A program made the translations under genes and the position numbers. DNA of 64,000 nucleotides from Ehretia macrophylla (taxonomy: Eukaryota > Streptophyta > Magnoliopsida > Boraginales > Ehretiaceae): assembly GCA_037974665.1 (NCBI GenBank), contig CM075768.1, positions 60,158,316-60,222,315 on the forward strand, written 5' to 3'. The notes under the pieces are model-generated. The model did no database searches and had not been told where the DNA came from. It saw only the letters and a program-made list of their open reading frames with translations. Shown here piece after piece: positions 1-55,553 of this stretch; position 1 is the stretch's first letter; every line of letters begins with the position of its first letter.

Positions 1-253
1 CATCATCTGGAGTTTGATCAGAACGAATAGGATTGTCATTGTGGTAAAAAACATTCTCCGAAATATCGAACGACTGATTGAAACAGTATTTTGAAAATAG
101 TTTGTGCAACTTCACATGTTTTTTAATACTAAACCACCTTATTTCACCATTGTGGTGGTTTCTAACACTCAGCATTATTTTTTCTTTGCGAGGTGGCTGA
201 TCCACCACATATGACACAGTAGAACCATCGTCGAGTTCATTGTTTGAAGACAT
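1..253 (-). CDS. SUMO-like protein, 3' end cut by window edge
   Basis: Starting at the ATG at 253-251, the minus strand reads 84 codons without a stop to the window edge. Residues 18-84 align with plant SUMO: VDQP, a K-I-x-L-S-V first strand, G-E-x-x-W-F-x-I, an aligned Y-C pair, and QTPDD near the break, where SUMO has the loop before its last strands. The C-terminus, with any Gly-Gly, lies outside the window. It is a diverged paralogue (about one third identical by eye) of the plus-strand gene at 787, which shares VDQP, GE, WF, YC and QTPDD. The two are head to head. SUMO is a small modifier conjugated to lysines of nuclear proteins; whether this copy is conjugated is unknown. A TATA-like stretch lies near 369-377. 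Confidence 0.75.
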   Translation of the reverse strand, partial: MSSNNELDDGSTVSYVVDQPPRKEKIMLSVRNHHNGEIRWFSIKKHVKLHKLFSKYCFNQSFDISENVFYHNDNPIRSDQTPDD

Positions 254-786
254 TGTGTATGGGGTTTAGTTGTGGGTTATGGTATGTTAGAATGTAATTA
301 GTGAAAGAATGTTTGAAATACAATTGTTTTTTTTTTTTTTTTTTTTTACGATTCTTCAATTGAGTATCATATATAAGGAAGGAATAATGACTGTATCGCG
401 TCTCTTCGAGTGCACCGCGTATGTTCAAATTATGTCTAAATTTAATGCATCACAATAAACGAAACGGACGAATGTCATTTGGATTTAATGCAAGTACATT
501 GATTCATCATGAATCTCCCCATGAATCCTGTCCATGTTTCAAAATGACAGTGTATTATGGGTTGTTTTGGGTGACGTGTCAAATTTGCATTGAATGTTGC
601 CCAAAAAATTTAAAATAAATGTAACCCAAACAAAGAAGTTATTCGATTAGTTTAATTATTCACGAAGAGGCACCATGCACGTCCATTAATAACTGTTCCT
701 TAAATGCTAGCGTTATAAAAGGCAAAAAAAACAATAAAACGATTGTACCAATTTTCACCGACTAACATTCAATTAAAAACGTCTCC
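254..786. promoter_or_regulatory. Shared intergenic region of two divergent SUMO-like genes
   Basis: These 533 bases separate two divergently transcribed SUMO-like genes, so they should hold both promoters. For the plus gene, TATAAAAGG lies at 714-722, 73 bases before the ATG. For the minus gene, TTATATAT reads on the minus strand at about 377-369. A run of about 22 T lies near 327-348. The ORFs that can be drawn here are short and resemble nothing. Promoter function is inferred from position and TATA boxes only. Confidence 0.5.
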
Positions 787-1134
787 ATGGAACCAATTCC
801 ACTGCGAGTCGTGTTTCCTTCCTTGAGCTGTGAACCTAGCGATCAATCAGTCTTGTCTCATGAAGTGGACCAGCCCCGTCGAGAAGGAAAAATATTTGTG
901 AGTGTTATTGGCCAGCGTGATGGTGAATGTATTTGGTTTAGGATTCATCGCAATAGGACAATGCGGAGAATGATCTGGTCATATTGTAAGAAAAAAAATT
1001 TAGAGAGGCAAGCCGTTGAGTTTTTGTTCAACGGTAATCAAATTATATTCACTCAAACTCCTGATGACGTAGATATGGTGGCGCAAGATGAGATTGTCGC
1101 CATGATACATCCATATGGAGGCGAGAGTATCTAA
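787..1134 (+). CDS. SUMO-like modifier precursor
   Basis: An intact 115-residue ORF with a good start context (TCCATGG). About 32 N-terminal residues are poorly conserved. The ubiquitin-like fold follows: KIFVSV (strand 1), G-E-x-x-W-F-R-I (strand 2), a helix ending in W-S-Y-C, then E-F-L-F-N-G-N and QTPDD-x-DM, DEI-x-AMIH. Each segment matches the order of plant SUMO (FRIKR...AYC...FLFDG...QTPDELDM...DEIDAMLH). It ends HPYGGESI: a Gly-Gly followed by a three-residue tail, as in a SUMO precursor that a Ulp1-type protease must trim. Normal SUMO has a polar HQTGG end; here it is HPYGG. The gene is single-exon, unlike typical host SUMO genes, and lies beside a second SUMO-like gene and two Ulp1 genes, which suggests a mobile or captured origin. 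Confidence 0.85.
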   Translation: MEPIPLRVVFPSLSCEPSDQSVLSHEVDQPRREGKIFVSVIGQRDGECIWFRIHRNRTMRRMIWSYCKKKNLERQAVEFLFNGNQIIFTQTPDDVDMVAQDEIVAMIHPYGGESI

Positions 1135-1914
1135 TTTGTATTTTAATAAATTTATTACTCTATGTATTTTTTTTTTTGCAATTAATATATATATGTTTCA
1201 TTATGGATGTGTCTCATGTTTCATTTTTTTGTTTCATTATAAAATAATGAAATATGAATTACCGAAAAATCGAATATATATATTTTTACAAAGAATAAAT
1301 AAATTATCAATATTGTAATCGATACTATCTGTATTTAGTATTACACGTAAAAAAATTACAAACAGTTAAAAAATAGATGATTTTGTAGAGTGAAGTTTTT
1401 ATTATTTTACAAGCATAATTTGGTTACCATATAATGACCCGCCACGTGGAATTATTGGGAAGATAAATAATGTGGAAAAAATTAAATTATACATAACGTA
1501 AAAATCTATAAAAATAGTCAACAATCAATCTATCCTATCTCCATACCTACACGGCGAACCCAATGTAGTCACCTACCCATTGTCTTAACCTATCACATCA
1601 GCGTTTGACACTATCATTATTGACACTTCCCAATGTCCATCCCCATTCTATGCAAATTTTTTTCCCGCTTCATTATCGCTCCACCGCGTTCTCTAAATGG
1701 GACAATACGAGCTTGAAGAAGGATATTGTATTTAGGGTATCTTCAATGGGGCTCTAAAAATATAATTATTTACAAAAAAATTAGTATTTACAAATTTATG
1801 ATTGTATCATGCTATTTAGGCCTAAATTACTTTGCAACAAACGCAAAGATTAGTCTATTATAATTTTAATGAGAAACAAGAACCGTCAACATAGATACAA
1901 TGAAACACAAAATA
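1135..1914. other. AT-rich 3' flank, no gene seen
   Basis: This is noncoding, AT-rich sequence between the SUMO-like gene and the gypsy insertion point. Poly-A-signal-like AATAAA occurs at about 1144-1149 and in the following 150 bases. I see no gene-sized ORF. Near 1887-1905 the motif CCGTCAACATAGATACAAT resembles CCGTCAAGATAGATGCAAT just after the insertion (about 11997-12015), so the pre-insertion site already held a short local repeat. Confidence 0.5.
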
Positions 1915-1919
1915 AGTCC

Positions 1920-4422
1920 TGTGACGCCCGAGATTTAGCCATGCATTCAATTACTGTTGCATCTCTTGTTTGCGCATTTCCTTCTGTGGTTTATTAACTG
2001 TCTTCTTAAATTACTATTCACTTCATTTTTAACTTCATTCTATTAGCGAATTAGCATTTTTACTAAATCATATTAATTGTTAAAGTAGTGGAAAAAATGT
2101 GCAATTGAGCTAGAGGCGATAGGAGAGCTCATTTAGAAAATGATTTTTGTAGTCAAATGAATAGTGTTACGTAACTAACTTACAGATTTAATTAGCTAGC
2201 CTTTGTTTCACACATTAGGCTCGTTATAAAGCTAGCAACGCACATTTTAGAAGCCTACTTAACCACCCACTTGACCCCACCTCAACTTAACCACATTATA
2301 TAACTCACCTTAGCTCATAACTAGCATAAAACAAAACAAAAATTGCTGAAAGTTATTGTGCTTGGGCCGAGAGCAGCTAGGAGGAGGAAAAAGTGATTTT
2401 TTGCTCTTCAACTCTCCAATTCAAGCCAAGCCAAGCCTTGAGCAAGTAGATTAGGGTGTGTGCAAGGTTCCTAGGTGCTCCTACGCGCATTGGTGAGGGA
2501 TTTCACGGCTTATTTTCGCATTTCTAAATAGTTGCTATTTTCTTGATTTGTTGAAAATGTGATCAAATGCTATTGTATTAATTATCTATGCTATTATACC
2601 ATGTATATGAATGCTAGAGAACATATTTGAGCCATCGTTTCGCTTTTTAAACAGTTGGAATCGTTAGTTTGATTCATGAGGTGAATAGTGACATTTTTTT
2701 TTTTGGGTTTTGTGTAATTGCTCGAATTAGCTTGATTTAATGCTCCTAATAGATGCCTTAGGTGCTAATTAAGGTATTCTAATAGCCCCGTGCACTTGCA
2801 TTGCTCTAGAATCGCATAAAACGTGAAATAGCTGACTTTAACAAAGGGCTTTCGAGGTTAATGCGAATCCGGGTGGATTCGGGCTTCACTTCTAGTATTC
2901 TTAGGCTACCTAGGTGCTATAGAAGCTTAGATAACCCTTGTTTGAAGTCCGGATAAGGTATGTGTAGTTTAAAGCCATAAGAGGGAATTCGGGGCTTTCA
3001 GGGTATTTGCGGGCGTTTGAATGAATTAGAGGGTTGAGAGGGTTCCTTGAGGATTAGTTAGAAGGTTGTGAGAGTTTCTCTTTGAAATGGAATCATTAAC
3101 TTGGGATTGGAAGAGAAATAGTGTGAAAAACAAAGGGGTTTAAGTGAAATTTCGGTTGTCTCACGCTTCTAAGTCCATGGCATGACTCCATGAGTATTTA
3201 AATGTGGTTTCAAGTTGATTTGGAGCTTTCGGTATGATTCCATGCTTATCATGTATATGTCCCTTTGTAAAACTGTTTATTTGCTTGTATAAACTGCTTC
3301 TATTCTAACTGCATTGAGGTCAACCTACTTTGTTGATCCTCCTACGTGTTATTGCTTATCTTATTGATATTAACTTGCCATTGTAAATTGCATTGCATAG
3401 TAGTTGCGCAACCATAGTGTCAGGGGCGGATGTATTGAATATCGGCTGGGCAGCAGAGGGCTGGCCGGTGGATATTCAAACTCCGTGCCCTAGTCCCTCA
3501 TTCACCTGGTCCGGAGATTGCCAGGGGATGTTGGGTCGTAGGATTATCGGGGTACATCCGGAGTACATCCATTGGAGTGTTTGGGGCTATGCCGGCTTAT
3601 CGTGATCGTGATCGTGGTTCGTGGATCGTGAATGAAGACCCAGTGAAGATTGGTGTATAGGGGTTATGTGAAATGTATCCTTTCAAATGTGTGGTTATTT
3701 AAGCTATCGTTGTTTCTTGAATTGCTCAATTGATATTGTTGTTAACTGTATTACTTGTTGCATTGCACACCCCGGGACCTTATCCCTCACTGGGCAACAG
3801 TGGTTGCTCATACCTCGATATATGTTTCAGGAGACGCTGAGGGTGATCCTCAGCTTGTTGAGGTAGTAGAGGAGGAGGAAGTTCAGACTGATCCTTTACC
3901 TTAGTTGTTGTGCCTGATAGCTTGAGGTAGTTTATATTCTTGCTGCTATGTGGAAGGCTCATCTGTTTAGCTTATATCCTATTTTGTAGCCTAAGGGCTA
4001 TGTATATGCTTGTTGTACAAAGTTGAAGGATAGTTGATTGTGGTGTAGATTTGGAAGCCTATGTCTTGTAATAACTTATGTTTCTGCTTTTATTCACTTT
4101 GCATGCTTGGGAGTGAATGGCTTCTTGTAGAATGTTTTATCTTTTAAGTATGTTTTAATGTTATCCTAGAATGTCATGGCTATTAGACTATGTTGTAAAC
4201 AAAGTTACTTGTATGCTTGTATGGTTTTGGAACTGTTGTTTGCTTCAAGGCTCGGATGGCCTTGAATCTTTAAATATTTAGCCATGAAAAGCTTATTTAT
4301 CTTGTGGTTACCTTATTTGGGAGTTTACAGGTTTTTAGAATGTCCACGGTACAGGGGAGACTCTGTCCGTGTGTCGGGTCCGGACTTAACCTTTAGCTTG
4401 GGGGTTGGGTCGAGTCGTGACA
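1920..4422 (+). repeat. 5' LTR of gypsy element 1
   Basis: A long terminal repeat of 2503 bp beginning TGTGACGCCCGAG and ending CGAGTCGTGACA. It matches 9474-11974 along its whole length. Its left flank is the target duplicate AGTCC (1915-1919). It should hold the Pol II promoter and the polyadenylation region. A segment with CACCCCGGGACC and CCCTCACTGGGCAAC (about 3768-3792) recurs, inverted and diverged, in the solo LTR near 44150-44190, so the two families are related. Confidence 0.95.
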
Positions 4423-4428
4423 TTTAAG

Positions 4429-4440
4429 TGGTATCAAAGC
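4429..4440 (+). promoter_or_regulatory. Primer-binding site, tRNA-iMet
   Basis: TGGTATCAAAGC lies six bases after the 5' LTR. It matches the usual plant initiator tRNA-Met site TGGTATCAGAGC except one G to A, the same transition type seen throughout this element. Confidence 0.9.
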
Positions 4441-4775
4441 TATAGATTGCATTAAGCCGGGTTAAATTTCTTGGTCTGTGGGTAGAGATTTGTTATGTGA
4501 CTTTGTGATTGCATGAATCTGTGGCTTTTGATTTGTCTAAGTGAAATTTGAATTAGGAATGAACATGCTAGCATGAAAATGGAATATCAAGAGTCTAGAA
4601 TGTCAAGTATGATCTAGTGACTTATGTGTACTTCAAGAATGTAGGATATTTATATGAACTTCTATATACTTGACTTTATGTGAATCTATTTGAACTTTTC
4701 TTTATGTGTTTACTTATAAATTGCATATATACATATATATACCTGTCATAACACTTTGCATTCTAGCTATTCGAG

Positions 4776-7700
4776 ATGGGGCCCCGCCGTCGTACTGAGA
4801 ATCAGAATGTCGATAGAGAATCGGAAGAGGTTCATGGGCAAGAAGCCGGATTAGCAGGTAATGCACCCCCAGTTCAAGAACCGAGTACGACACAGATCTT
4901 AACCACAATGGCCACTGCTATGAACACCATCGCCCAGTTTGTGACACAGCAGGGTCAGACAGGGGTTGTTGGAGGTAATCAGGCTACGAGAGCGGGGGGT
5001 AGTAGTACTACCGAGGATAACTTGTATGACCGGTTTATTCATCATGGGGCCTACACTTTCTTTGGAGAACCGGATGATATGAAGGCTGAAATGTGGCTGA
5101 GGAAGTTTGAAAGGGTGGCAGCAATACTTGAGTGCCATGATGATAGGAAGATCACTTATGCCTCATTCCTTCTAGAAGGTGACGCTGAAGATTGGTGGCA
5201 TACTATCAGTGAGAAATGGGAAGTCGAGAGGGTTCATCATTCGTGGGCTGATTTCGTCCGAGAATTCCGAGACAAGTACATATCGGTGGTTGCCCGCAAG
5301 AGGCGTCAAACAGAGTTCATAAACTTAAAACAGGGAAGTATGACAGTGGATCAATATGAAGCTACTTTTACCAGGCTTTCCCGTTATGCGCCAGCCTTGA
5401 TACATCCAGAGGACATGAAGATCCAGAGATTTATCCTGGGATTGAGAAGGGATATTATGCTAAATTTGTTTGTGAATGATTTCCCTAATTATGCTGCAGT
5501 GGTCCGAGCCGCCTCGAGATATGAGAATCGCAAGGCAGACGTGTTAGCTGAGACTAGTCAACCTAATAAGCGGCAGTTTTAGTCACAGAGTCAGGGGTAC
5601 CAGAGTCAAGCTATTTCAGTTGGGTAGAATTCACAGCCGAGGCAGACACAGAGTTATACAGGGCCTACTCAGACTCAGACACGACTAGTTCAGAGTCAGA
5701 CTCAGAGTCAATCCCGTCTAGCGGTGTCCCGTACATAACAAGGTAGTTCAGCTACCTCTACTTACAGAGCTCCTTCGGGAGGCACTGCTCTAAGACGTCA
5801 CCAGCAGTGCAGCTTCTGTCAACGCTAGGGCCATACTGAGGAGGTTTGTTGGAAGAGATTGGGCCGGTGTACCGGATGTGGCAGTGATCAACATAGGGTT
5901 AAGGACTGTCAGAAATTTAAGAACCCTAGGGGTCAGACGTCAGCTCAGAACTCTCAGACCAGGGCACCAGCTGTAGCACCACTACCACGAGGTCAGGCCC
6001 GTGTATTTGCTTTGGATGCTGAGAAGCTTCCGGATACGACCGCTATGGTAGAAGGTATTTTTCTTCTTAATGATCAATCAGTTAAGGTTTTAATTGATTT
6101 CGGGGCTTCGCATTCATTTATTACACCTATTTGTGCACAAAATGCTAAGTTGAAACAAGATAAATTATTGCATGATATTGTGGTTTACACTCCTATGGGG
6201 CCGAAGTTTATTACCAAATCTATCTGCAAGGCATGTAATATTTATATTCAAGGTCGTGTTTTTCCTGCCAATTTAATTATTCTACCTTTTCGCGACTTTG
6301 AAATTATATTGGGGATGGACTGGTTAAGTAAATATTATGCCCAACTTGATTGTAGGAAGAAGATTGTGTATCTAGAAATGCCCGACCAGCCTGTACTTAA
6401 AATAGTTGGTAGTAGAAAATCTACATGAACTCCTATTATTTCTTCTATTAGAGCATCTAAATTATTGAGCAAGGGTTGTGAGGCTTATCTTGCATATTCA
6501 ATTAATCAACCTGTGGATCAATTGAAATTGAATGATGTACCTATCATGAGGGAGTTTCCGGGGGTCTTTCCTGAGGAATTACCTGGGTTACTGCCTGATA
6601 GGGAGATAGAGTTCATGATTGACTTACTGCCGGGGACTTCACATATCTTTAGGACTCCGTATAGAATGGCTCCGCCCGACTTGCAAGAATTGAAAGTTCA
6701 ATTGCAGGGCTTGCTTGAGAAGGGATTCATTCAGCCGAGTTCTTCACCTTGGGGGGCGCCAGTCCTATTTGTTAAAAAGAAAGACGGATCTCTTCGCTTG
6801 TGCATTGATTATCGGGGTCTTAATCAGGTAACTATCAAAAATAAATATCCTTTGCCTTTAATTGAAGAGTTATTTGATCAGTTGCAAGGCACCAAGGTAT
6901 TCTCTAAATTCGATCTGAGGCAAGGCTATTATCAGTTGAGGATTAAGAAAGATGATGTTCCTAAGACTGCTTTCAGAACTCGGTATGGCCATTATGAGTT
7001 TGTTGTCCTGCCGTTTGGTCTTACTAATGCTCCTGCCGCATTCATGGACTTAATGCAGAGGGTATTCCGTCCTTATCTGGACCAATTTGTGGTTATCTTT
7101 ATTGATGATATTCTTGTTTATTCTAGATCTGAGACGGAACATGAACAACATCTCAGAATTATGTTGCAGACTCTTCAGGAGCATCAGTTATTTGCGAAGT
7201 TTAGCAAATGTGAATTCTGGCTTAAGCAAGTTGCTTTTCTTGGCCATATTATCTCGCAGGATGGTATTTCTGTTGACCCAGCGAAGATTGAAGTTGTGTT
7301 ATCTTGGAAACGACCTGAAACGGTCATGGAGATCCGTAGCTTCCTTGGTTTAGCTGGGTATTATCGGAGGTTCGTCAAGGAATTCTCTAAGATTGCAGGG
7401 CCTTTAACTCAACTTACTCAATAGAAAACAGTATTTGACTGGAGTGATAAATGTGAGGCCAGCTTCTAGGAATTGAAGAAGAGATTGACTACAGCTCCTA
7501 TTCTTGCTTTACCTGAGGGTTATGATAATCTGGTGATCTATAGTGATGCTTCGAAGGAAGGTCTGGGTTGTGTATTGATGCAGAATGGCAGGGTTATTGC
7601 TTATACTTCCAGGAAACTGAAACCTTATGAACTCAACTATCCGACTCATGATCTTGAGCTTGCAACTATCATTCTTGCATTAAAGAAATGGTGTCGTTAT

Positions 7701-9473
7701 CTCTGGGGCAACAAGTTTGAAATCTTTACAGATCATAAGAGCTTGAAATATCTGTTTTCACAGAAAGAGTTGAACATGAGGCAGAGGCGCTGGCTTGAAT
7801 TACTTGAGGACTATAACTGCACTATTAACTATCTTCCGGGTAAGGCCAACATTGTTGCTGATGCTTTGAGCCGAAAGGCTACTGTTGCTAGCTTGATTAT
7901 CAAGAATTGGGAATTCATGGAAAAATTATGCTTATGGAAGCCTAGTACTTCAAATTCTGGTATTCAATTCGCAAGTTTACAAATTCAATCTTTATTATTA
8001 TCCAGGATTCGAGAAGCTCAACAGGCTGATCTTCAATTGTTGAAAGTCTTAGAGAATTCTAAAGGGGGAGAGTCGGATTTCAAACTACACGACGATGGTA
8101 TTCTCAAATTCAAAGGTAGAATCTGTATTCCGAATAATCCAACTCTGAAGAAGGATATTCTTGCTGAGGCACACAGTTCTAGATATACTATCCATCCAGG
8201 CAGTACAAAAATGTATAGAGATTTGAAGCAAAACTTCTGGTGGAATAATATGAAGAGAGAAATTGCTGATTATGTTGCTCGATGTCTTACTTGTTAGAAA
8301 GTCAAAGCCGAGCATCAGAGGCCTGCAGGGTTGTTACAGCCTTTGGCTATTCCTGAGTGGAAGTGGGATCATATCACCATGGATTTCATCTCTGATTTAC
8401 CGAGGTCTTCGAAGGATAATGACTCAGTTTGGGTTATTGTGGATAGATTGACCAAGACTTCTCACTTCATCGCTAAAAAGAAGTCTGATTCTCTTGATAA
8501 GCTAGTAGAGTTTTATATTGAGAATGTTGTCCAACTTCATGGAATTCCAAAGAGTATTGTGTCAGATAGAGATCCCAGATTCATATCTCAGTTCTGGCAG
8601 AAGATTCAGAAAGCTTTGGGCATGGCTTTGAGTTTCAGTACAGCTTATCATCCTCAGACAGATGGTCAATCCGAGAGAACTATCTTAATCCTCGAGGATA
8701 TGTTACGGGCTTGTATTATGGACTTCGGTAAGAGTTGGGAGAAGTATTTGCCACTCGCAGAGTTCGCCTATAACAATAGTTATCAAGCTACTATTGGTAT
8801 GGCACCTTATGAGGCACTTTATGGGCGTAAATGCCGGTCTCCTCTCTACTGGGATGATGTTGGTGAAATGAAGACTATCGACCCTACTCTTTTACCTGAG
8901 ATGAACAAAATGATTGATCATGTGCAGCTTATCAGAAAAAGAATGCTTACAGCACAGAGTCGACAAAAGAGTTATGTAGATAGACGCCGTCGTGATTTGA
9001 AATTTGCCGTGGGGGATCGACTATTTTTGAAAATTTCTCCTCGCAAGGGTTTGATTCGGCATGGTAAATGAGGTAAACTCAGTCCTCGATATGTGGGACC
9101 ATTTGAGATAACTGAAACTATTGGTGAATTGGCTTACCGTCTAGATTTACCTCCCAGTCTGGGCAGAATTCATGATGTCTTCCATGTTTCTATGCTTCGG
9201 AAGTATCAGCCAGATCCCTCTCACATACTTGAGCTGGAACCGCTAGAGATCAGTGAAACTTTGACCTACACAGAGAAACCTCTTCGGATTGTAGATCAGA
9301 AAGTTTAGGAGCTGAGGACTAAAAGTATTCCGATGGTTAAAGTTCTGTAGGATCATCACGGCATAGAGGATACGACGTGGGAGAGAGAGGATCGGATGCG
9401 GGAGCGATATCCAGAGTTATTCGCCGAATCATGTAAGAATTGTGTGGACGCAATTAGTTTAAGGCGGAGAGGA
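4776..9473 (+). pseudogene. gypsy gag-pol polyprotein, broken by in-frame stops only
   Basis: One reading frame runs from the ATG at 4776 to the 3' LTR without a frameshift. Order: gag capsid (EPDDMKAEMWL, then RLSRYAP), two zinc knuckles near 5812-5910, aspartic protease at about 6090 (VLI-D-F-G-A; the usual D-S-G is D-F-G), reverse transcriptase (FIDDILVYS at about 7098-7124), RNase H ([10 protein letters not shown] at about 7540), integrase with HHCC zinc site ending in RCLTC (8280-8294), DDE residues in MDF, SDRDPRF and QSERT, and a chromodomain remnant. Eleven stops interrupt it: 5580, 5625, 5736, 5826, 6426, 7422, 7467, 8295, 9069, 9306 and 9348. Nearly all can be explained by C to T or G to A changes in Gln, Arg or Trp codons. 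It cannot make a full polyprotein now. Confidence 0.95.
9461..9473 (+). promoter_or_regulatory. Polypurine tract of gypsy element 1
   Basis: AAGGCGGAGAGGA directly precedes the 3' LTR. One pyrimidine interrupts it. This is where plus-strand DNA synthesis is primed in LTR retrotransposons. Confidence 0.8.
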
Positions 9474-11974
9474 TGTGACGCCCGAGATTTAGCCATGCAT
9501 TCAATTACTATTGCATCTCTTGTTTGCGCATTTCCTTCTGTGCTTTATTAACTGTCTTCTTAAATTACTATTCACTCCGTTTTTAACTTCATTCTATTAG
9601 CGAATTAGCATTTTTACTAAATCATATTAATTGTTAAAGTAGTGGGAAAAATGTGCAATTGAGCTAGAGGCGATAGGAAAGCTCGTTTAGAAAATGATTT
9701 TTGTAGTCAAATGAATAGTGTTACGTAACTAACTTAGAGATTTAATTAGCTAGCCTTTGTTTCACACATTAGGCTCGTTATAAAGCTAGCAACGAACATT
9801 TTAGAAGCCCACTTAACCACCCACTTGACCCCACCTCAACTTAACCACATTATATAACTCACCTTAGCTCATAACAAGTAAAAAACAAAACAAAAATTGC
9901 TGAAAGTTATTGTGCTTGGGGCGAGAGCAGCTAGGAGGAGGAGAAAGTGATTTTTTGCTCTTTAACTCTCCAATTCAAGCCAAGCCAAGCCTTGAGCAAG
10001 TAGATTAGGGTGTGTGCAAGCCTCCTAGGTGTTCCTACGCGCATTGGTGAGGGATTTCACGGCTTATTTTCGCATTTCTAAATAGTTGTCATTTCTTGAT
10101 TTGTTGAAAATGTGATCAAATGCTATTGTATTAATTATCTATGCTATTATACCATGTATATGAATGCTAGAGAACATATTTGAGCCATCGATTCGCTTTT
10201 TAAACGGTTGGAATCGTTAGTTTGATTCATGAGGTAAATAGTGACATTTTTTTTTGGGGTTTTGTGTAATTGCTCGAATTAGCTTGATTCAATGCTCCTA
10301 ATAGATGCCTTAGGTGCTAATGAAGGTAGTCTAATAGCCCCGTGCACTTGCATTGCTCTAGAATCGCATAAAACGTGAAATAGCCGACTTTAACAAAGGG
10401 CTTTCGGGCTTAATGCGAATCCAGGTGGATTCGGGCTTCACTTCTAGTATTCTTAGGCTACCTAGGTGCTATAGAAGCTTTGATAACCCTTGTTTGAAGT
10501 TCGGATAAGGTATGTGTAGTTTAAAGCCATAAGAGGAAATTCGGGGCTTTCAGGGTATTTGCGGGCGTTTGAATGAATTAGAGGGTTGAGAGGGTTCCTT
10601 GAGGGTTAGTTAGAAGGTTGGGAGAGTTTTCCTTTGAAATGGAATCATTAACTTGGGATTGGAAGAGAAATAGTGTGAAAAACAAAGGGGTTTAAGTAAA
10701 ATTTCGGTTGTCTCACACTTCTAAGTCCATGGCATGACTCCTTGAGTATTTAAATGTGGTTTCAAGTTGATTTGGAGCTTTCGGTATGATTCCATGCTTA
10801 TCATGTATATGTCCCTTTGTAAAACTGCTTATTTGCTTGTATAAACTGTTTCTATTCTAACTGCATTGAGGTCAACCTACTTTGTTGATCCTCCTACATG
10901 TTATTGCTTATCTTATTGATATTAACTTGCCATTGTAAATTGCATTGCATAGTGGTTGCGCAACCATAGTGTCAAGGGCGGATGTATTGAATATCGGTTG
11001 GGCGGTAGAGGGCTTGCCGGTAGATATTCAAACTCCGTGTCCTAGTCCCTCATTCGCCTGGTCCAGAGATTGCCAGGGGATGTTGGGTCGTAGGATTATT
11101 GGGGTACATCCGGAGTACACCCACTGGAGTGTTTGGGGCTATGCCGGCTTATCGTGATCGTGATCGTGGTTCGTGGATCGTGAATGAAGACCCAGTGAAG
11201 ATTGGTGTATAGGGGTTATGTGAAATGTATCCTTTCAAATGTGTGGTTATTTAAGCTATCGTTGTTTCTTGAATTGCTCAATTGATATTGTTGTTAACTG
11301 TATTACTTGTTGCATTGCACGCCCCGGGACCTTATCCCTCACTGGGCAACAGTGGTTGCTCATACCTCGATATATGTTTCAGGAGACGCTGAGGGTGATC
11401 CTCAGCTTGTTGAGGTAGTAGAGGAGGAGGAAGTTCAGACTGATCCTTTACCTTAGTTGTTGTGCCTGATAGCTTGAGGTGGTTTATATTCTTGCTGCTA
11501 TGTGGAAGGCTCATCTGTTTATCTTATGTCCTATTTTGTAGCCTAAGGGCTATGTATATGCTTGTTGTACAAAGTTGAAGGATAGTTGATTGTGGTGTAG
11601 ATTTGGAAGCCTATGTCTTGTAATAACTTATGTTTCTGCTTTTATTCACTTTGCATGCTTGGGAGTGAATGGCTTCTTGTAGAATGTTTTATCTTTTAAG
11701 TATGTTTTAATGTTATCCTAGAATGTCATGGCTATTAGACTATGTTGTAAACAAAGTTACTTGCATGCTTGTATGGTTTTGGAACTGTTGTTTGCTTCAA
11801 GGCTCGGATGGCCTTGAATCTTTAAATATTTAGCCATGGAAAGCTTATTTATCTTGTGGTTACCTTATTTGAGAGTTTATAGGTTTTCAGAATGTCCACG
11901 GTACAGGGGAGACTCTGTCCGTGTGTCGGGTCCAGACTTAACCTTTAGCTTGGCGGTTGGGTCGGGGCGTGACA
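9474..11974 (+). repeat. 3' LTR of gypsy element 1
   Basis: The 2501-bp partner of 1920-4422, ending GTCGGGGCGTGACA and followed by the target duplicate AGTCC at 11975-11979. The outermost bases of the two ends (TGTGACGCCC and GGGGCGTGACA) are imperfect inverted repeats, as integrase ends require. Confidence 0.95.
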
Positions 11975-11979
11975 AGTCC

Positions 11980-12599
11980 CGTGAAAAATAACTTACCGTC
12001 AAGATAGATGCAATCTATCAAATAACATAATGTCAAACAAAACACGTTTTACCGTTTTAAATGGCAAAGTACAACTTCCCAGCCCAGTCATCCCATCCGT
12101 TAGTACAAAAAACTTTTTCAAAACTCACTTCCCCAAAACTCAACCTACAGCCGCCTATTTTCCTTACTGTTTAAATATTTACACAATCCTACAGTGTCAC
12201 ATCGGATCTAATCCCTCAAGATTGATGTCTTTGGCAACACACACCATCTTCCACCTAACCTAACTCCACCACCCATACAATCTGTAAAGGTCAAAACAGC
12301 TCATTTCCATCTTAGATTACCTATTTGTTTTCTCTCACAGCCCCTTCTAACCTAGAAGATCACAACAGAAGCAGCTGAAGCAAGAATGAGTCAATCCGAC
12401 AAACTATGAGTCAATCTGTAATTGTTTTATTGTCAAATTTTATTTTTTTTGCATGCACTTTGATTAGTTCATGTATATTATTTAGTTCTACATTACAAAA
12501 GAAAAAAGTTTATTTTATGATATTACTCGTTACCCAGACGTTGATTAGGTTATCATTGTTTTATTCAACTTTAAACATTTGGTATTTTGCTTGCATATA
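11980..12599. other. Upstream region of Ulp1-like gene A, no sure gene
   Basis: This is the original locus resuming after the gypsy insertion. It is rich in A and C with no recognisable protein. ATGAGTCAATC occurs twice within 25 bases (12387 and 12406). It may hold the promoter and a first exon of the Ulp1-like gene that follows; I could not fix either. Confidence 0.35.
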
Positions 12600-14605
12600 A
12601 TGTCGGTTGTTTCCACGTTCAAGGTCGAGGAAACAACCCAGGAGAATAACACCTACATTGATTCGTACCCCGACACCCACAACTCAAATTAAGGTTTGAT
12701 ATGAATAGTTCGATTTGTGGTTTTTACCATTTTTCCAGAAGAAAACTAGGTTGACAATATTTTACTAAATGTGAAGGGACTCAGAAAGGAATTAAAGCAA
12801 ATGAAGCAAGCTCAAAAAGTCATGGAACATGAATTGCAGAGTGCCAAAACAGTTTGGAATGACATGTCTACCATGTTGAGGCAATTCATCAGAAAATTCG
12901 ATATGAAACTTAATGTTCTTAACGTTCGCAATGGTGGAGCTGCGCACAAAAATATTGATGATGACGACTTTGGTGTGGGCAGGACCGATGGAGATGAAGT
13001 CGGTGATCAAGGTTTGGGAAATGGCAAACATCCCACTTCCTCAAATGAATTTGCTGGAAACCCACTAACAACTGTGTTTTCAGAGGATAGTTATTCTATC
13101 AATTCCCCAGAATTTCATTACCATGCTAGTGTTAAAGTTATTAAAGCAGGTTGTTCAAGGCGTCTATTTGGAAACGAAGAACGCTGCAACACTTCCAAAC
13201 AAATAAAACCAATTTACGTGAATCTGAGCAGTGACACAAGTACTGGTTTGCCAACAAACCGTTACTTAAACTATCCACAACTTCATGTGTCAATGGAACC
13301 AGGCAATTCAAAGTGTATATTTGGAAAAAATCAACAACTATGCAAAAAATCTAAACAAAAAGATGTAGTTGATGTGAATGTGAGCAGTGACACAAGCTGG
13401 ACTTTGCCAACACTTCATGAAACTCGTCCACAACGTCATTTGTTGATGGAAGATGATGACCTGCTGGATGATTATTTGTTTTCAACCGAGAAGGATCCCA
13501 TGTGAACATTTGTTATTTGTTTTGCGATTCGATTAAGTTAGTTATAGACTGTATTAAATTAATCCAGCTATCGTGTCTGTCGTAGGGAGGTGTTTGTTGA
13601 CATGGATATTTACTACATAACACGTCACCAAATGCTCGAACTGAAGTCTAACGCATGCTTATCGTCTGCTGTGAGTGTATAACAAAAAATGTAACATTAA
13701 TATGAACACTTTCTTACTAACTGTTTTCCTTGTCATATACAGATAATCGATTGCTACGTGTTTAAGCTAACAGATGAGGCCCGACGGTTTGAATGCGACA
13801 TGCCTAATTGGTATCTACCCTCGTCTTTTACGATATGTTTAGAATTGTGAAACGTAAGAAATTAAAGTCAATTCCTCTACATATTACGATGCATAGAATA
13901 ATATAAAAACACATTTTATGTAATGCAGCAACACATTTTGGTTGGCTTCCAAGGAAAGCCCATTGATGTGCAAAGTTGCATAAAATTTTATTGGAGTCCA
14001 ACAAAGTTCACACGTACACTGGCGGATTGCAATAAGATATTTAACTGTATTTATGTGGATGTTAGTTTGCCATAGAGTTTGGTTAAGAATATAATTAAAC
14101 GCACATTTTTTTTGCATATATTTGTACCCATAAATATCAACAATGTTCATTGGTATCTTTGCATATTCGACCTTGTATCGAATGAGATACTGCTATGTGA
14201 TGCTGCCCTAACCTTTGATCAAGGGCCTATGATAGCACAAATTTACAAGCTGCTATTATTATTTCTCAACTATAAGTTGTTAGTTTGATATCATGTTAAA
14301 ATTTAGTTGACTAACCAATCCCTGATTTGTAGGTGGTTTTCCTTGACAAGTTGTTCTAAGGAGCGGATCTAACCATATACGCAAACATGCAAAATGTTAC
14401 AACCTTTATGGTGCGGACGCCTCCTTGGGTACCCATACAAGTCGGTAGCTACGACTGTGGTGTGTATGTTTGTTCCATGATGAAAAACCCTGAAAAGTAT
14501 GAAGGTTGGTTGATGAAGGAATCTGAGGGTAAGCGGAAGCAGTTAGCCCGTGAAATGTGGCGACATTTGACCAACAAGGCCAATCACATGATATTTTGGT
14601 GCTGA
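12600..14605 (+). pseudogene. Ulp1-type SUMO protease gene A, N-terminal domain missing
   Basis: Exon-like pieces read in order: a short ORF at 12600, a coiled-coil and low-complexity exon at about 12771-13505 (ends D-D-L-L-D-D-Y-L-F-S), then about 13590-13668 (Y-Y-I-T-R-H-Q-M), 13742-13830 (PNWYLP), 13927-14280 and 14330-14605. Introns have GT-like starts and AG ends. The Ulp1 catalytic set is present: His in NNVHWYLC (about 14140-14163), Asp in LLCDA (about 14190-14205), Gln in VPIQVGSYDCG and Cys in that DCG (about 14430-14460). Ulp1 enzymes cut after Gly-Gly of SUMO precursors or conjugates. The N-terminal domain of the second copy is absent, and a TAG interrupts SLP-SLVKN near 14072, so it is probably not functional as it stands. 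It is convergent with gene B. Confidence 0.75.
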
Positions 14606-15628
14606 AGATATTGGTGATTTGTATGTTTTGTGTGGTTGCTTATGACTAAGGTTGACGTTTGTTATGTTTTTGGGATACAATGTTTGTGATCTTTTAATAT
14701 GAACTATGTTTTTCCATTTCTGTGTGTGATAAACATGATAACACAGTAACGAAGGAATTAAAGCAATTTTGCCAGCGCCACATGCTGCCTTTTAAGGATG
14801 CGTGTAAATATGTATTTTCATTTTATATGTATAATTTAATATTTTGCATACCTAATTTGCTTGCATTGTCGTTGTTATTACTTATAGTATTTTAACATGT
14901 TTATTGAACTAGAGTTTGAATGGACAAACATGTTACATAATTGTACCAGACTTTGGATAAAGACACATTAAATTACTGCGTACACACTTACACTTAGTAA
15001 TTTATATATATATAACTTTATACTTTTATTACATGAAATTAACAGAATCTTACATATAAGGAAGGGTTAACAATAGCAACTAGCTTTTTTGGGACTTGTA
15101 CTAAAAGAACACCCAAAGTTATGACGAAATGCTTCGAAACTTTTATTGTCGTGACTCTAGTAAAGCAAAAATTAATATTGGTATGTTTCATAACTGGAAA
15201 TATAAAATCTACTACTAAAAGATCCCCCGAAGTTAACAAAAAATGGTTAAGCACTACTTACATAACCCTAGACAGCACAAATACATATAATAGTATCACT
15301 AAATTGAGTACACATGTTATCACAAAATGATGGTAAACCTACTGGAACAATGCATAACCCTACCTTGAACAATTACAAGAATAACATATTTCGAATGTCC
15401 ATTACGTAAAATATGTATTACGTCTACTTAGAGAAATACCAGTGTTGGCAAAAAAAAACAATGCTTCCTAGCTGCTTCAAACGATAACCATATGCCCAAC
15501 ACAAAAAGCCAAAAGTTAATGTTATAAGTTACCACAATGGCAATGTGACAACAACAGATGCTACCCTTTGCAAAAACTAATTAGTAATAATAGACAATGA
15601 ATAGATGAGAAAAAAAACCAATCCGAAG
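14606..15628. other. Region between convergent Ulp1-like genes
   Basis: About 1 kb of AT-rich sequence lies between the two convergent gene ends. It should hold both 3' untranslated regions. Short ORFs on either strand resemble nothing. I see no repeat or RNA gene. Confidence 0.5.
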
Positions 15629-18543
15629 TTAACTACAATTGAAATTGAGAGGATTTCGGTTGTTGCATGCATGACGCCATAACTTTAACGCGAGCTGCGT
15701 ACGTTCATGCTCGGATCTTGCATCATTCAACCAACCAACGTTTTCCTAATTTTCCATCATCAAGCATACGTACAAACCACAATCAGTACCGTTATGTTGT
15801 GTCGGAACCCATTTAGGACTGCAATATTTGTAATCTTGCACACTCCTCATGGTTCTATATGTTGCGGCTTCTGCTTCATTTAAAAACTCATCCAGGAACT
15901 GAATCTACAATTATAGACAAATGTCAGTTTACCGAGTCATAAGCCAAGTAAAATAAAATGCATGGATCTGTTGTAACCAAGGAATGCATGGACAAACTGA
16001 ACCAAACGATTGGACTCTACCAGCTCTTTTACTCGACTAGTTATGCGTCTCCTTGACTTGGCTTTGTCTGACGTGTCACAAATTTTCACTGAACAACTGC
16101 TAAAGTCAACTATGCATAACAACCAATGTATATTTTCGAAATTAAAAGGCAAGAAAATCTGCAATATGAAATGCAAAGCTTCAATACACAAATAAGCAAC
16201 CTAAATACTGAATAAATGGGTACATAACTACAACAGATCTACCTCTTTACAATCGGCTAGATTTCCAGTGAATCTATTTGGACCCCAAAAATTCCTTTTG
16301 CATGCTTCGGAACTAAATGAGTCCCTTGTAAGTAATTGTTGTTGCAAGTAATTAAAATGCCAATAAATTTAATATTGTAAGGTACTTGAATTATATGTAT
16401 ACATACTAACGTAATTAGTATTATACTTACCGAAAAAAGAGTCGGCATATACCATCTGGGCATTTTAGGATCCATTGCCCTCACACCCAAAGTCAGTTGC
16501 CAAGCGAAAGTGTCAATTATCTTAAGTCATATACCCAAATGTCAAAGATTAGATTTTTCATTTCTATACAACACAAAACATACTCAACACGATTACTTAT
16601 ATGACACTCACAGAAGCTGAAATTTGCCGATCTGGTAGTAGTTCCTGCATGTCATGCCTCGTTAGATTGTAGAGCTTAGTGGACACTACTAATTCACTGC
16701 AGCACAAGTAATCAAACAAAATTAACCTAACATACATCACTTTTTTTTAAAAAAAAACACTAAAAGGGTAAAAAACTAACTTACTAAACATCTGCATATG
16801 TAGAAAACAAATAATTTGCCAATAGATCATCCGAAGTCACCAGTATGCTCGCAAGTTGTCTAGAAATAGTTACACCAATGTTTGGGCACCTCGTCCCCGC
16901 TAGAGATATCATCTGCCTATGCATGTGCACATTTCTTCTGCTTTTTATTGCCCTTCTTCTTGCTTTTTTTCTTGCCCCCCCTCTTATTATAACGCTCTTC
17001 ATCAGAACACACAACATATTGTTCATTCTTATGTACACAATCTCGACTCTCATGATTTCTCTGTCCTCCGTCTCTCCAAATTATAATCTCCTTACCCTCG
17101 CCGACTATACATCTATCTTCACTCTTGTTTTCTTCTTTTACAACTTCATCTCCACCCTCTGAATTTCTCCCTGCACTGTATCTACCATTATCATTCATCC
17201 CTGCATCGTATGCACCCTCTTCATTCCTGTCCGTATTACTTTCGCCTAATATCACTAGTAGCTGCTTAAACAAAGCCTTTAACTCATTGATTCCACGTGT
17301 ATTTTCCCTTGTGGCATCCTTAAGATCCATAACTTCAGACTTCATCTCTTCATATTTCCTCTCTAGGTTACTCATACAACTTTTGATTTCCTCCACATCT
17401 CTTCAAAGTTTCGTAGCCTTATCCGATGTCTGCTCCTTTGGTTGCCTTGTACTCTCAAACACAACGCAACCATTGGGGTCTGTGTATCCTCTATTTACTT
17501 GGTACCTGCTCATCCTTTTGCTCACATGATCGTCCGTCCAATACTTGATGCAAGGTCTATCATCGTGAGGAGGGTACAACTGCTCACGTGGGTACACGTG
17601 CTCAAAAAAGAAAATCTACAAAGACAAAGATATTTGTCGGTCAACTATTGATTAATCGGAATTGTCGCGACAATCTAAATGATATGCAATTAGAAAACTT
17701 GGCTTACCATAAAAAAGAACAAACATCCGCTCACGTATTTCCTCCCCTTGTGCTTCCAATGATGGACTCTATTTCGCAATGAATACAAAATGATTTTAGC
17801 CCAGTTATAACCTCCGATTGCATCGGTATCCTTCACTATGTGTAACATTTCCAGTTTAACTGCATGATTTACTATAGGACACAATAAATATCCAATCACA
17901 TATATGCAGTAGAGGGCTTTGAACTCCGGCCCATGACTTTTGCATTTATCCATTTCAGCAAATAGTTCTTTCAAAGGAATTGCATTCTCCTCCACTGTGA
18001 ATAACTTCTCAATATTTTCAATCTCACTGTGTATACCATCTGTTGGTACGTTCAGTCCTCTATTAGGAAGGCCTAGTACGCGTTCGACATCAACTGTTGT
18101 CACATCAATCTTCATGCCATGCACATTTAATGTCATCAACACCGGATCAAAATTATCAATAATCCATCGGCACAGTTGGTGCTTCAAGGTAGTACAGCGA
18201 AGGTGAAGAATACCACCAAATCCAATGCTTTCTACAGTTGCTCTTTGTTCTGGTGTTAGCTTTTCATTCAACTCCACTATCTTAGTCAAAGAGAGTTGGG
18301 TTTGAACGGTCTTCTGCAATAATGTGTTATATTTAATGAAGTCCTTATTGCTTCAAGGAATATCGACAACATATGATCATAAAAAGAAAAATAATTGGTA
18401 AAGCGCGAACTATAAAACTTCAATTATGTTGTTACCTTTTCACCATTCATTTTTTCCAACTTTTTCTTTTTCATGTTGTAAGAATTAGAGCTTTTCTGTG
18501 CCTTCTTAGTAAACACTTTTGATCCCCTGGGAGGCTTCTCCAT
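15629..18543 (-). pseudogene. Ulp1-type SUMO protease gene B with N-terminal LRCT domain
   Basis: A multi-exon gene read from 18543 down. Exon 1 is 18436-18543 (36 codons, lysine-rich). Exon 2 is 17708-18313 (202 codons: GFGGILHLRC, RWIIDNFDP, TLNVHG, VLGLPNRG), a domain usual in plant transposon-linked Ulp1 proteins. Exon 3 is 16785-17600 (coiled coil, Lys-rich tract). Then 16612-16696, 16431-16520, about 16243-16344, about 15975-16164 and 15629-15904. The phases I could test agree. The catalytic set is His in ENIHW, Asp in VKICD, Gln and Cys in PTQHNGTDCG. Damage: TGA at 17402-17404, a frameshift in exon 3 probably at the C run near 16974-16982, and TAG at 15746-15748 shortly after the catalytic Cys. 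It keeps more of the ancestral protein than gene A. Confidence 0.8.
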
Positions 18544-20475: not shown

Positions 20476-20482
20476 TTTTTTG

Positions 20483-20674
20483 CAAAAAAAATTCAAAACT
20501 TCTAAAATTTTGCAAACGCTTATACACCGCCACTTCTTTCAAAAAATGAAAATCTTTCTTTGCTCCTCAACTTTTACACAAAAAAAATTCAAAACTTCTA
20601 AAATTTTGCAAACGCTTATACACCCCCACTTCTTTCAAAAAATGAAAAGCTTTCTTTGCACCTCAGCTTTTACA
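20483..20674. repeat. Two-copy tandem duplication, 96-bp period
   Basis: The block starting ATTCAAAACTTCTAAAATTT at 20491 recurs at 20587. The two copies differ at only a few bases (CACCGCC/CACCCCC, AAATC/AAAGC, GCTCCTC/GCACCTC). The ORF over it is low complexity and probably not coding. Confidence 0.85.
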
Positions 20675-20984
20675 CACACTCAAAAGAGTTTCGATATAGT
20701 TTAGTGTCTTAAATTTGATAGAAGACTACAATATACTTGACATTATTAATGTTTTGGTATATATTCTACAACCTTGTTAATCATGACATAAATATGAGAT
20801 ATGTATATATTAACAAGGGAATAACATTCACCTCCGTTGAAGAAGCTTTCCCAAAAAGAAGCTAAAATAGTTAGAGAATGGGGTATATATGTCATTGAAA
20901 ATTTATTATCATTTTAGCTTTTTTTTTGGTCGACATTTTAGCCTTTATGACAATGGCAATAGTAAGAAGGAGAAATAAGAAAAA

Positions 20985-22530: not shown

Positions 22531-22539
22531 TAAGAAAAA

Positions 22540-23288
22540 TATAGGCTAATAGTGACAAAAGTTTTTATGTTGTAGGTTGGAAGAGAAAAAGTAAGAATTG
22601 ACGTGGCGATAGATTAAGTAATAAAGAAGAAAATAAATAATTGCTTAGCAAAAAGGCAAACAAAGGAAATTGTTAAGGAATTGAAAATCGTGAGTCGTGT
22701 TATCTTATGGAAAAAAAATAAGACTAAAGAAAAGACAGGCTAAGGCTTGTAGGCTGTCAGATGTGAAAAAAAGAATAAAGAAAGGAATACGAAGCTTGCT
22801 GTAGGTTTTGGAATAGGTTTTGGAAGCGAAGATTTGGCAAAAGAAAAATTGGGAGTCGTGTCCGATATTGAAGAAACGAAGGAAGAAATAAAATAATGAA
22901 GGTTCTGTATTGGACAAGTTATGTTGAAACGTCGAACACGCTAATATAGATAGAAATCCACTGTAATAATATTTGATCAGGGCTTATGGTGTTTTCACTA
23001 AGCTGACAGTATTTTCATGAATAGATATTTTATATTTTTATTTTTATTTTAAAAGATGATAAATATGTTTATATTTTGTCAAAGTAACACCAAATAGTGA
23101 ATTGACTGAATTCACTTGATTGCATTCGGGATATCTTGCTTTAAGAAATATTTACTCTTTTGTTTTTTTTTGTTTTTGCATTAAGAGGTTCTTCCTTTTG
23201 CGTTTTCTTAGGACTATCTCCTTACTTGTGGCTGATAGAATTCCTCGTGGCAGTTCTTTGACAACTAAAAATCGATGTTTCAATGGAT

Positions 23289-23323
<35 letters not shown>

Positions 23324-35193: not shown

Positions 35194-35236
35194 TATGTAT
35201 GTTTCATGTGTTGAGATTTGATTATCCATTTAAGCT

Positions 35237-35630: not shown

Positions 35631-35636
35631 TTTAAG

Positions 35637-35648
35637 TGGTATCAGAGC
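35637..35648 (+). promoter_or_regulatory. Primer-binding site of gypsy element 2
   Basis: TGGTATCAGAGC, the exact plant initiator tRNA-Met site, lies six bases after the LTR. Confidence 0.95.
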
Positions 35649-55524: not shown

Positions 55525-55553
55525 GGTGCATTAGTGCTGGTATGATTGCACCC
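55525..55553 (-). pseudogene. Truncated 5S rRNA gene at array edge
   Basis: Only the first 29 bases of the transcript (from GGGTGCAATC) remain; the rest is replaced by unrelated sequence. It marks the array end on the Argonaute side. Confidence 0.9.

What the first reader, a model, noticed from the sequence alone, without database searches (positions are those of the whole stretch)
1..18543. SUMO-like modifiers and Ulp1-type SUMO proteases encoded together, each in duplicate, on one repeat-like locus
Seen: divergent SUMO-like genes (1-253 minus, 787-1134 plus), and after removing the gypsy insertion (1920-11974) two convergent Ulp1-type genes only about 1.5-5 kb away. The SUMO copies keep the fold and one keeps Gly-Gly plus a tail; both Ulp1 copies keep His, Asp, Gln and Cys. 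Known: Ulp1-like genes ride on plant Mutator-like elements (KAONASHI type). I do not recall a described plant element that also carries its own SUMO. Inference: a mobile element that encodes both the modifier and its maturation/removal enzyme could act on the host SUMO system, for example on silencing or on transposase control.
Basis: partly seen in the sequence, partly recalled or inferred. Interest (0 to 1): 0.88.

Follow-up and report, generated by a model that had tools for sequence, protein, structure and literature searches.

The report
A jumping gene carrying SUMO genes
This stretch of a plant chromosome is part of a "jumping gene" that carries, besides the enzyme for moving itself, its own copies of the small protein tag SUMO and of enzymes that cut SUMO; such elements were known to carry the cutters, but the searches made here found no report of one carrying the tag.

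Summary
SUMO-like and Ulp1-like genes recur together across the host genome (1.58 Gb, 20 contigs): around 18 of 20 fetched SUMO copies a Ulp1-type match lies within 20 kb downstream, on the same strand as in the window; shifted positions give almost none. Extending leftwards gave a FAR1/MULE-type transposase (Pfam MULE 1e-24, FAR1 2e-23) and a GRF zinc-finger gene. Element ends were found: short degenerate terminal inverted repeats and perfect target-site duplications in two independent copies (window ATTTTAAAG; C14 GTGGAATAA). So this is a 19.5-kb Mutator-like transposon, split by a later gypsy insertion, with transposase, GRF protein, two (in some copies three) SUMO-like genes and two Ulp1-like genes. 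A second, diverged subfamily has the same kind of module. In the window copy transposase and both SUMO frames are open, but both Ulp1 genes carry in-frame stops. Codon statistics show purifying selection on transposase, Ulp1 genes and SUMO2; SUMO1 and GRF are inconclusive. Ulp1 on MULEs (KAONASHI) is known; SUMO on one is, as far as searched, new. What the SUMO does is inferred.

The parts
1..19882 (.). Right two thirds of a Mutator-like element (SUMO-MULE); its left end lies outside the window at C5:60148590 (about 9.7 kb left of base 1)
   Evidence: Colinear homology to other copies and element ends with target-site duplication
1..253 (-). SUMO1-like gene, single exon, 99 aa; its 3' end lies left of the window; no Gly-Gly (ends EILAIERS)
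254..786 (.). Region between the divergent SUMO1/SUMO2 pair, presumably holding both promoters (inferred)
   Evidence: Sequence reading; SUMO1 (-) lies beside SUMO2 (+) in 17 of 20 fetched copies
787..1134 (+). SUMO2-like gene, single exon, 115 aa, ends PYGG + ESI tail; TATA-like TATAAAA at 714-720 and AATAAA at 1145-1150 (by eye)
   Evidence: Pfam Rad60-SLD 4.8e-11; PDB plant SUMO; 127 genome match rows
1920..11974 (.). Later gypsy LTR retrotransposon insertion inside the element (target duplication AGTCC at 1915-1919 and 11975-11979)
12750..14605 (+). UlpA: Ulp1-type peptidase gene with coiled-coil/disordered N-terminal exon (judged by eye); pseudogene in this copy
15635..18543 (-). UlpB: plant-mobile-domain-like N-terminus, coiled coil (by eye), Ulp1-type peptidase; pseudogene in this copy
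   Evidence: PMD 2.6e-5 (below curated cut-off), Peptidase_C48 1.2e-13
19838..19882 (.). Right terminal region with degenerate inverted repeat to the left end
19883..19891 (.). Right copy of the 9-bp target-site duplication ATTTTAAAG (10-bp match if the preceding C is counted)

Best explanation
SHOWN: the locus is one copy of a Mutator-like DNA transposon family. Order: left end, subterminal direct repeats, FAR1/MULE transposase (+), GRF zinc-finger gene with hydrophobic tail (+), SUMO1 (-), SUMO2 (+), in some copies SUMO3 (-), UlpA (+), UlpB (-), right end. It moved as one unit and left target-site duplications. INFERRED: the transposase moves it. UlpA/UlpB, KAONASHI/VANC-like proteases with a plant-mobile-domain-like N-terminus in UlpB, mature the Gly-Gly SUMOs of the element (SUMO2, SUMO3) and/or strip SUMO from host proteins. 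SUMO2/SUMO3 are conjugated to silencing factors or to the transposase, while SUMO1, which has no Gly-Gly, can only act non-covalently, as a decoy. The net effect most likely favours the element by weakening or redirecting SUMO-dependent silencing.
For: Same gene order in other copies. 13 of 14 close transposase relatives (75% or more) have a SUMO-like match within 20 kb; 43 of 91 SUMO-like places have a UlpB N-terminal match within 20 kb versus 0.28 expected (max 5 in 500 shifts). Transposase domains. Element ends with 9-10-bp and 9-bp target duplications in two independent insertions, chance 62 in 200000 per copy. Selection on shared variants: transposase 0.30 [0.21-0.45], UlpB 0.50 [0.36-0.73], UlpA 0.54 [0.37-0.81], SUMO2 0.56 [0.38-0.93]. 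Catalytic residues across copies: UlpA Gln 15 of 15, Cys 13 of 15; UlpB Gln 10 of 11, Cys 11 of 11. A second subfamily with 56-62% identical GRF carries a 51-53%-identical Gly-Gly SUMO in an equivalent place, with transposase and Ulp genes nearby. KIU-carrying VANDALs are described as inducing loss of methylation (review PMC13317346, passages).
Against: No expression, methylation or biochemical data. Shared-variant ratios of SUMO1, 0.68 [0.43-1.18], and GRF, 0.62 [0.40-1.05], do not exclude neutrality, and some shared variants come from segmental duplicates. Both Ulp genes are broken in the window copy, and of 14 close transposase places only this one has a full frame without stops. Some Ulp stops are shared by several copies: UlpB middle region 5 of 7, UlpA next-to-last residue 7 of 15, so parts of the gene models may be wrong. 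The UlpB N-terminus is below the curated cut-off for PMD and DUF1985. A 2018 paper considers KAONASHI proteases unlikely to act on SUMO (PMC6117577, passages). Only 11 of 48 transposase places at 54-60% have a SUMO-like match within 20 kb, and 44 of 91 SUMO-like places have no listed transposase or UlpB match within 20 kb (lists are capped).
Confidence: 0.7

Rival explanations
1. The SUMO-like genes are passive cargo (transduplicated host gene, as in Pack-MULEs); only transposase, and perhaps the Ulp genes, serve the element.
For: MULEs often capture genes (PMC2528002, PMC13317346, passages). SUMO1 has no Gly-Gly and its selection ratio does not exclude 1. 13 of 20 fetched copies showed no SUMO3 in the 10 kb held. 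Related FAR1-MULE/Ulp families have no SUMO match nearby (0 of 25 UlpB-like places under 54% identity).
Against: SUMO2 shared-variant ratio 0.56 [0.38-0.93]; SUMO kept in two diverged subfamilies in an equivalent position; three paralogues, two of which keep Gly-Gly plus a tail.
Confidence: 0.22
2. Host SUMO-like tandem genes (SUL type) that happen to sit beside unrelated Ulp1-type transposon relics.
For: Divergent SUMO-like genes and tandem copies are known in angiosperms (PMC6680281, one section and passages), and 25 of 49 alfalfa SUMO genes lack introns (PMC13380885, passages).
Against: The SUMO pair recurs dispersed with the same Ulp1 and transposase neighbours, inside boundaries with target duplications.
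Confidence: 0.02
3. Copies spread by segmental duplication of chromosome pieces, not by transposition.
For: Four C17 copies are spaced about 0.36-0.40 Mb apart, and two more 0.71 Mb apart.
Against: Homology stops at the same two ends in unrelated flanks, with TIR and perfect target duplications on C5 and C14; SUMO-like match rows lie on all 20 contigs.
Confidence: 0.03

Closest known systems
KAONASHI (KI/KIU) Ulp1-carrying MULEs of Arabidopsis, and Ulp1-carrying MULE/CACTA elements of melon, rice and grapevine
   Same: DNA transposon with a Ulp1-type (Peptidase_C48) gene next to a MULE transposase; Ulp1 in either orientation (PMC2528002, PMC13317346, PMC6117577, passages)
   Different: Here two Ulp1 genes, short TIRs rather than none, FAR1-type transposase, and SUMO-like genes, which none of the passages read mentions
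Jittery-group MULEs (FAR1/FHY3-like transposase, plants)
   Same: FAR1 domain at the N-terminus and MULE domain; SWIM-like C-terminus; ULP domains reported in Jittery-like MULEs of melon (PMC6446971, PMC2528002, passages)
   Different: Listed as one-ORF elements in PMC6446971; this one has six to seven genes and is 19.5-20.8 kb
VANDAL elements with VANC anti-silencing proteins
   Same: Accessory protein with plant-specific N-terminal domain; KIU-carrying VANDALs exist; repeats in non-coding parts (PMC5735166, PMC13317346, passages)
Plant SUMO-like (SUL) genes
   Same: Rad60-SLD/SUMO fold, some with Gly-Gly plus tail; tandem copies
   Different: Here dispersed with a transposon; the majority SUMO2 is identical to the majority of six canonical plant SUMOs at 35 of 96 positions
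Transposon-encoded deubiquitinases (VTD family in Helitrons)
   Same: A transposon carrying a modifier-directed protease (PMC9741609, passages)
   Different: Other superfamily, other protease family; the passages read mention no modifier gene on the element

Membership tests
Mutator-like element (MULE) | MULE transposase domain | tested here: met
   PF10551 1.1e-24 in a 696-aa open frame, L029:745-2832
Mutator-like element (MULE) | 9-11-bp target-site duplication | tested here: met
   ATTTTAAAG (window copy, 10 bp if the preceding C is counted) and GTGGAATAA (C14 copy), chance 62/200000 per copy; both ends were reached in these two copies only
Mutator-like element (MULE) | Terminal inverted repeats | tested here: met
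   About 28-30 bp, degenerate: C14 copy 4 of 5000 random pairs score as high; window copy 41 of 5000
Jittery/FAR1-type MULE | FAR1 DNA-binding domain at the N-terminus | tested here: met
   PF03101 1.7e-23
Jittery/FAR1-type MULE | SWIM or CCHC zinc finger at the C-terminus | tested here: inconclusive
   PF04434 0.056, under cut-off; a CCHC-like pattern across an exon junction was seen by eye
Jittery/FAR1-type MULE | Single open reading frame | tested here: not met
   Six to seven genes
KAONASHI/KIU | Peptidase_C48 gene carried by a MULE | tested here: met
KAONASHI/KIU | Non-TIR MULE (Arabidopsis definition) | tested here: not met
   Short TIRs present
KAONASHI/KIU | Nearest relatives of the protease are KIU proteins | not tested
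   The protein search with joined UlpB found nothing at E<=0.01; no KIU set was compared
SUMO | SUMO/Rad60-SLD fold | tested here: met
   By sequence profile only: SUMO2 4.8e-11, SUMO3 8.5e-11, second-subfamily SUMO 5.1e-15, SUMO1 6.4e-5 just under cut-off; the structure model was too poor to use
SUMO | C-terminal Gly-Gly | tested here: met
   SUMO2 PYGG, SUMO3 SGGG, second subfamily FGG; SUMO1 NOT met
SUMO | Activation and conjugation by SAE/SCE1 | not testable with these tools
   Needs biochemistry
Host SUMO/SUL gene | Synteny with host SUMO loci | not tested
   The search for canonical SUMO in the host genome did not complete
VANC anti-silencing protein | DUF1985 domain | tested here: inconclusive
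   E 0.068, 13.6 bits against cut-off 35.1
VANC anti-silencing protein | Causes loss of methylation at its own element | not testable with these tools
   Needs plants and methylome data

The most novel reading that the evidence does not exclude
A transposon lineage carries a self-contained SUMO module: several element-encoded SUMO variants (conjugatable ones and one that cannot be conjugated) plus two matching proteases. It was taken up before the two subfamilies split, kept under selection, and used against SUMO-dependent silencing of the element or to control its transposase.
Probability: 0.45. Interest if true: 0.95.

Novelty: new variant of a known kind. Interest (0 to 1): 0.86.

Why it matters
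Why plant DNA transposons of several superfamilies keep SUMO-protease genes is an open question; the published view is an advantage of unknown kind (PMC13317346, passages). An element that also encodes the modifier ties the protease to SUMO chemistry and makes the question directly testable: does UlpA/UlpB process the element's own SUMO2/SUMO3, and does that SUMO alter host silencing? It would be a mobile element with its own post-translational modifier genes.

Tried and rejected
Rejected: chance neighbours and host tandem SUMO genes. Before the data in hand fitted a host SUL pair beside transposon relics; the genome search overturned that.

Led nowhere: searches of viral contigs and genome contigs with SUMO2, and of viral contigs with the UlpB N-terminus; protein search with SUMO2 alone (1 candidate, none passing) and with joined UlpB (5278 candidates, none passing); read-through Pfam sweep of 11980-23394, which also missed the known Ulp1 exons and so proves nothing; AlphaFold of SUMO2 alone (mean pLDDT 50), not used; CpG comparison, too short to carry weight. 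The SUMO1/SUMO2 comparison alone gave pN/pS 0.78, 95% 0.52-1.21, which does not exclude neutrality.

Not done: the host's canonical SUMO genes (search with P0014, never answered); right ends of further copies. Of five copies whose right side was fetched, only two reached the end (window, C14); the C7, C17 (50.68 Mb) and C8 (31.47 Mb) copies stopped matching earlier. The C17 copies look like segmental duplicates and are not independent. The SUMO list of 127 rows was cut by hand to 91 places (pair partners and split pieces dropped), 111 of the 151 UlpB N-terminal matches were used, and 64 places from 65 transposase rows.
Full report
WHAT WAS CLAIMED AND WHAT IS THERE. The window holds a head-to-head pair of single-exon SUMO-like genes, 1-253 (-) and 787-1134 (+), and a convergent pair of Ulp1-type genes, 12750-14605 (+) and 18543-15635 (-), separated by a gypsy retrotransposon at 1920-11974 with 97.1%-identical LTRs and a 5-bp target duplication AGTCC. 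SUMO2 matches Pfam Rad60-SLD at 4.8e-11, and its best single-domain PDB relative is tomato SUMO. The joined Ulp1 exons match Peptidase_C48 at 8e-12 and 1e-13 and keep the His, Asp, Gln and Cys positions in alignments to yeast Ulp1 and SENP2.

TWO CORRECTIONS. Both Ulp1 genes of this copy are broken: one in-frame stop and (by eye) lost splice sites in UlpA, two in-frame stops in UlpB. Only SUMO2 has Gly-Gly; SUMO1, completed with the DNA left of the window, ends without it. The two SUMOs share 20 of 60 core residues and the two Ulp1s 36%, so the duplicates are old.

THE DECIDING TEST. The host genome (1.58 Gb, 20 contigs) gave 127 match rows for SUMO2, on all 20 contigs, many as the same head-to-head pair. 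Twenty 10-kb stretches around the best SUMO2-like matches were fetched. In 14 of 20, UlpA follows downstream of SUMO2 on the same strand, and in 10 of 20 UlpB follows it on the opposite strand, as in the window. The six without Ulp1 inside the 10 kb are L010, L015, L023, L026, L027 and L028. The genome-wide search with the last UlpA exon finds a match within 20 kb, downstream and on the expected strand, for four of these six, making 18 of 20; the two without are L015 (C16, nearest about 55 kb away) and L027 (C20). SUMO1 lies beside SUMO2 in 17 of 20. A third SUMO-like gene (SUMO3, Gly-Gly-Gly plus a four-residue tail) lies about 1-2 kb beyond SUMO2 in 7 of 20; it was not found in the window's first 30 kb nor in the 11 kb to its left.

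THE ELEMENT. The DNA left of the window (L029) encodes a 696-aa open frame with FAR1 (1.7e-23) and MULE (1.1e-24) domains, then a GRF zinc-finger gene (2.1e-6) with a hydrophobic tail. Homology to other copies ends on the left at C5:60148590 (C14 copy, C8 31.47-Mb copy to within 2 bp, and C8 66.2-Mb copy nearby) and on the right at window 19882 (C14 copy). Three further copies whose right side was fetched stop matching before that point. Flanking these ends are perfect target duplications, ATTTTAAAG (10 bp if the preceding C is counted) for the window copy and GTGGAATAA for the C14 copy. Random end pairs with 15 offsets allowed give a 9/9 match in 62 of 200000 trials. The ends are short, degenerate inverted repeats: for the C14 copy 4 of 5000 random pairs align as well, for the window copy 41 of 5000. 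The C14 copy is 20.8 kb; the window copy is 29.6 kb including the gypsy, hence about 19.5 kb without it. The left subterminal region contains direct repeats of up to about 550 bp.

HOW TIGHT IS THE LINK. Of 14 transposase places at 75% identity or more, 13 have a SUMO-like match within 20 kb (exception C20:40373199); at 60-75% it is 1 of 1, at 54-60% 11 of 48, below that 0 of 1. UlpB N-terminal matches have a SUMO-like match within 20 kb in 16 of 24 places at 75% or more, 25 of 33 at 60-75%, 2 of 29 at 54-60% and 0 of 25 below. From the SUMO side, 43 of 91 places have a UlpB match within 20 kb, against a mean of 0.28 and a maximum of 5 in 500 shifted sets, and 26 of 91 a transposase match (mean 0.15, maximum 2); 44 of 91 have neither (the lists are capped and the UlpB list was used in part, so linkage is a lower bound).

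A SECOND SUBFAMILY. Two further copies with 51-53% identical SUMO (L044, L045) carry a GRF gene (56-62% identical) and, on the same strand as the GRF gene, a reading frame that by eye resembles the frame following the transposase in L029, in the same relative order. Their SUMO has Gly-Gly followed by a long tail with a hydrophobic stretch. Transposase matches of 55-60% and Ulp1 matches lie next to such SUMO matches at several places, for example C9:41.16-41.18 Mb. FAR1-MULEs with UlpB-like genes but no SUMO match nearby also exist, for example C6:43.47 Mb. The simplest reading is one uptake of SUMO in part of this MULE lineage. The tree groups SUMO1, SUMO2 and the second-subfamily SUMO apart from canonical plant SUMO and SUMO3, so SUMO3 may be a second uptake; the tree rests on about 100 positions and has no outgroup.

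STATE OF THE COPIES AND SELECTION. Among 14 close transposase places only the window copy has a full-length frame without stops. Among the 16 full-length SUMO2 matches, five have no stop. Many stops in the Ulp genes are private to one copy or to the C17 group, as expected from decay after insertion, but some are shared more widely: the UlpB middle region at one position in 5 of 7 copies, UlpA at its next-to-last residue in 7 of 15. There the gene model may be wrong or the stop old. The catalytic Gln and Cys are kept in 15 and 13 of 15 UlpA copies and in 10 and 11 of 11 UlpB copies. Pairwise dN/dS is 0.47 for the transposase (6 copies), 0.50 UlpA (14), 0.51 UlpB peptidase (9), 0.58 and 0.37 for the UlpB N-terminus (5) and middle (7), 0.63 SUMO2 (21), 0.62 GRF (16) and 0.75 SUMO1 (18). 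Restricting to variants shared by two or more copies gives: transposase 0.30 [0.21-0.45], UlpB 0.50 [0.36-0.73], UlpA 0.54 [0.37-0.81], SUMO2 0.56 [0.38-0.93], GRF 0.62 [0.40-1.05], SUMO1 0.68 [0.43-1.18]. So SUMO2, the Ulp genes and the transposase were under selection while the family was active; for SUMO1 and GRF this is not shown. The C17 copies are probably segmental duplicates, and some of the shared variants come from them.

HOW IT MOST LIKELY WORKS. Shown: a transposon that moved as a unit and carries transposase, GRF, SUMO and Ulp1 genes. From established families: a FAR1/MULE transposase moves MULEs; Ulp1-type enzymes mature SUMO and deconjugate it. Inferred: the Ulp proteins act on the element's own Gly-Gly SUMOs and/or host SUMO, and the system favours the element by acting on SUMO-dependent silencing or on its own transposase; SUMO1, without Gly-Gly, can act only non-covalently. 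Against: a 2018 nomenclature paper considers KAONASHI proteases unlikely to act on SUMO (PMC6117577, passages).

WHAT IS KNOWN. Ulp1 genes on MULEs (KAONASHI; also melon, rice and grapevine, including Jittery-like MULEs and CACTA) are known from PMC2528002, PMC13317346 and PMC6117577 (passages). KIU-carrying VANDALs are described as inducing loss of methylation in PMC13317346 (passages); VANC itself in PMC5735166 (search listing and passages). FAR1 domains and single frames in the Jittery group: PMC6446971 (passages). Divergent SUMO-like genes: PMC6680281 (one section and passages). A SUMO gene on a MULE was not found in five searches of the held paper library (listings read) nor in the passages read. 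Hoen 2006 and van Leeuwen 2007 were seen only as cited by others, so absence from print is not proven. A protein search with SUMO2 alone found no relative in 5.8 billion sequences, with only one candidate sharing words; the profile search found canonical plant SUMOs, at most 42% identical to SUMO2 among the 120 rows listed of 855.

Noticed in passing
L044:1941-2378 and L045 (C17:28.48 Mb, C9:41.17 Mb): Second MULE subfamily whose SUMO-like protein has Gly-Gly followed by a tail with a hydrophobic, membrane-span-like stretch (judged by eye).
   Followed up: partly
L029:3671-4126 and L044:2817-3446: GRF zinc-finger gene with a hydrophobic C-terminus between transposase and SUMO; a relative in the second subfamily by tblastn, though Pfam gave no match for the L044 frame. 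Role unknown.
   Followed up: partly
L015, L017, L020, L021, L022, L026, L028: Third SUMO-like gene (SUMO3), closer to canonical plant SUMO (43 of 92 positions) than SUMO2 is (35 of 96), ending Gly-Gly-Gly plus a short tail.
   Followed up: partly
C17:50.28, 50.68, 51.05, 51.44 Mb and 81.38, 82.09 Mb: Element copies at regular spacing (about 0.36-0.40 Mb; 0.71 Mb for the last two), suggesting large segmental duplications.
   Followed up: no
window 55525-64000: Tandem satellite with a unit of about 680 bp, roughly 83-85% identical when shifted by whole units.
   Followed up: no
window 20984-22531: Small element-like unit with about 110-bp, 82%-identical inverted ends.
   Followed up: no
window 35236-43082 and 31331-34110: A second LTR retrotransposon (395-bp LTRs, 96% identical) and, by its frames, a decayed copia-like element.
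   Followed up: no
G000 C6:43.47, C17:34.02, C17:26.37 Mb and others: FAR1-MULE transposases with UlpB-like genes but no SUMO match nearby, several without stops; a possible SUMO-less sister family.
   Followed up: partly
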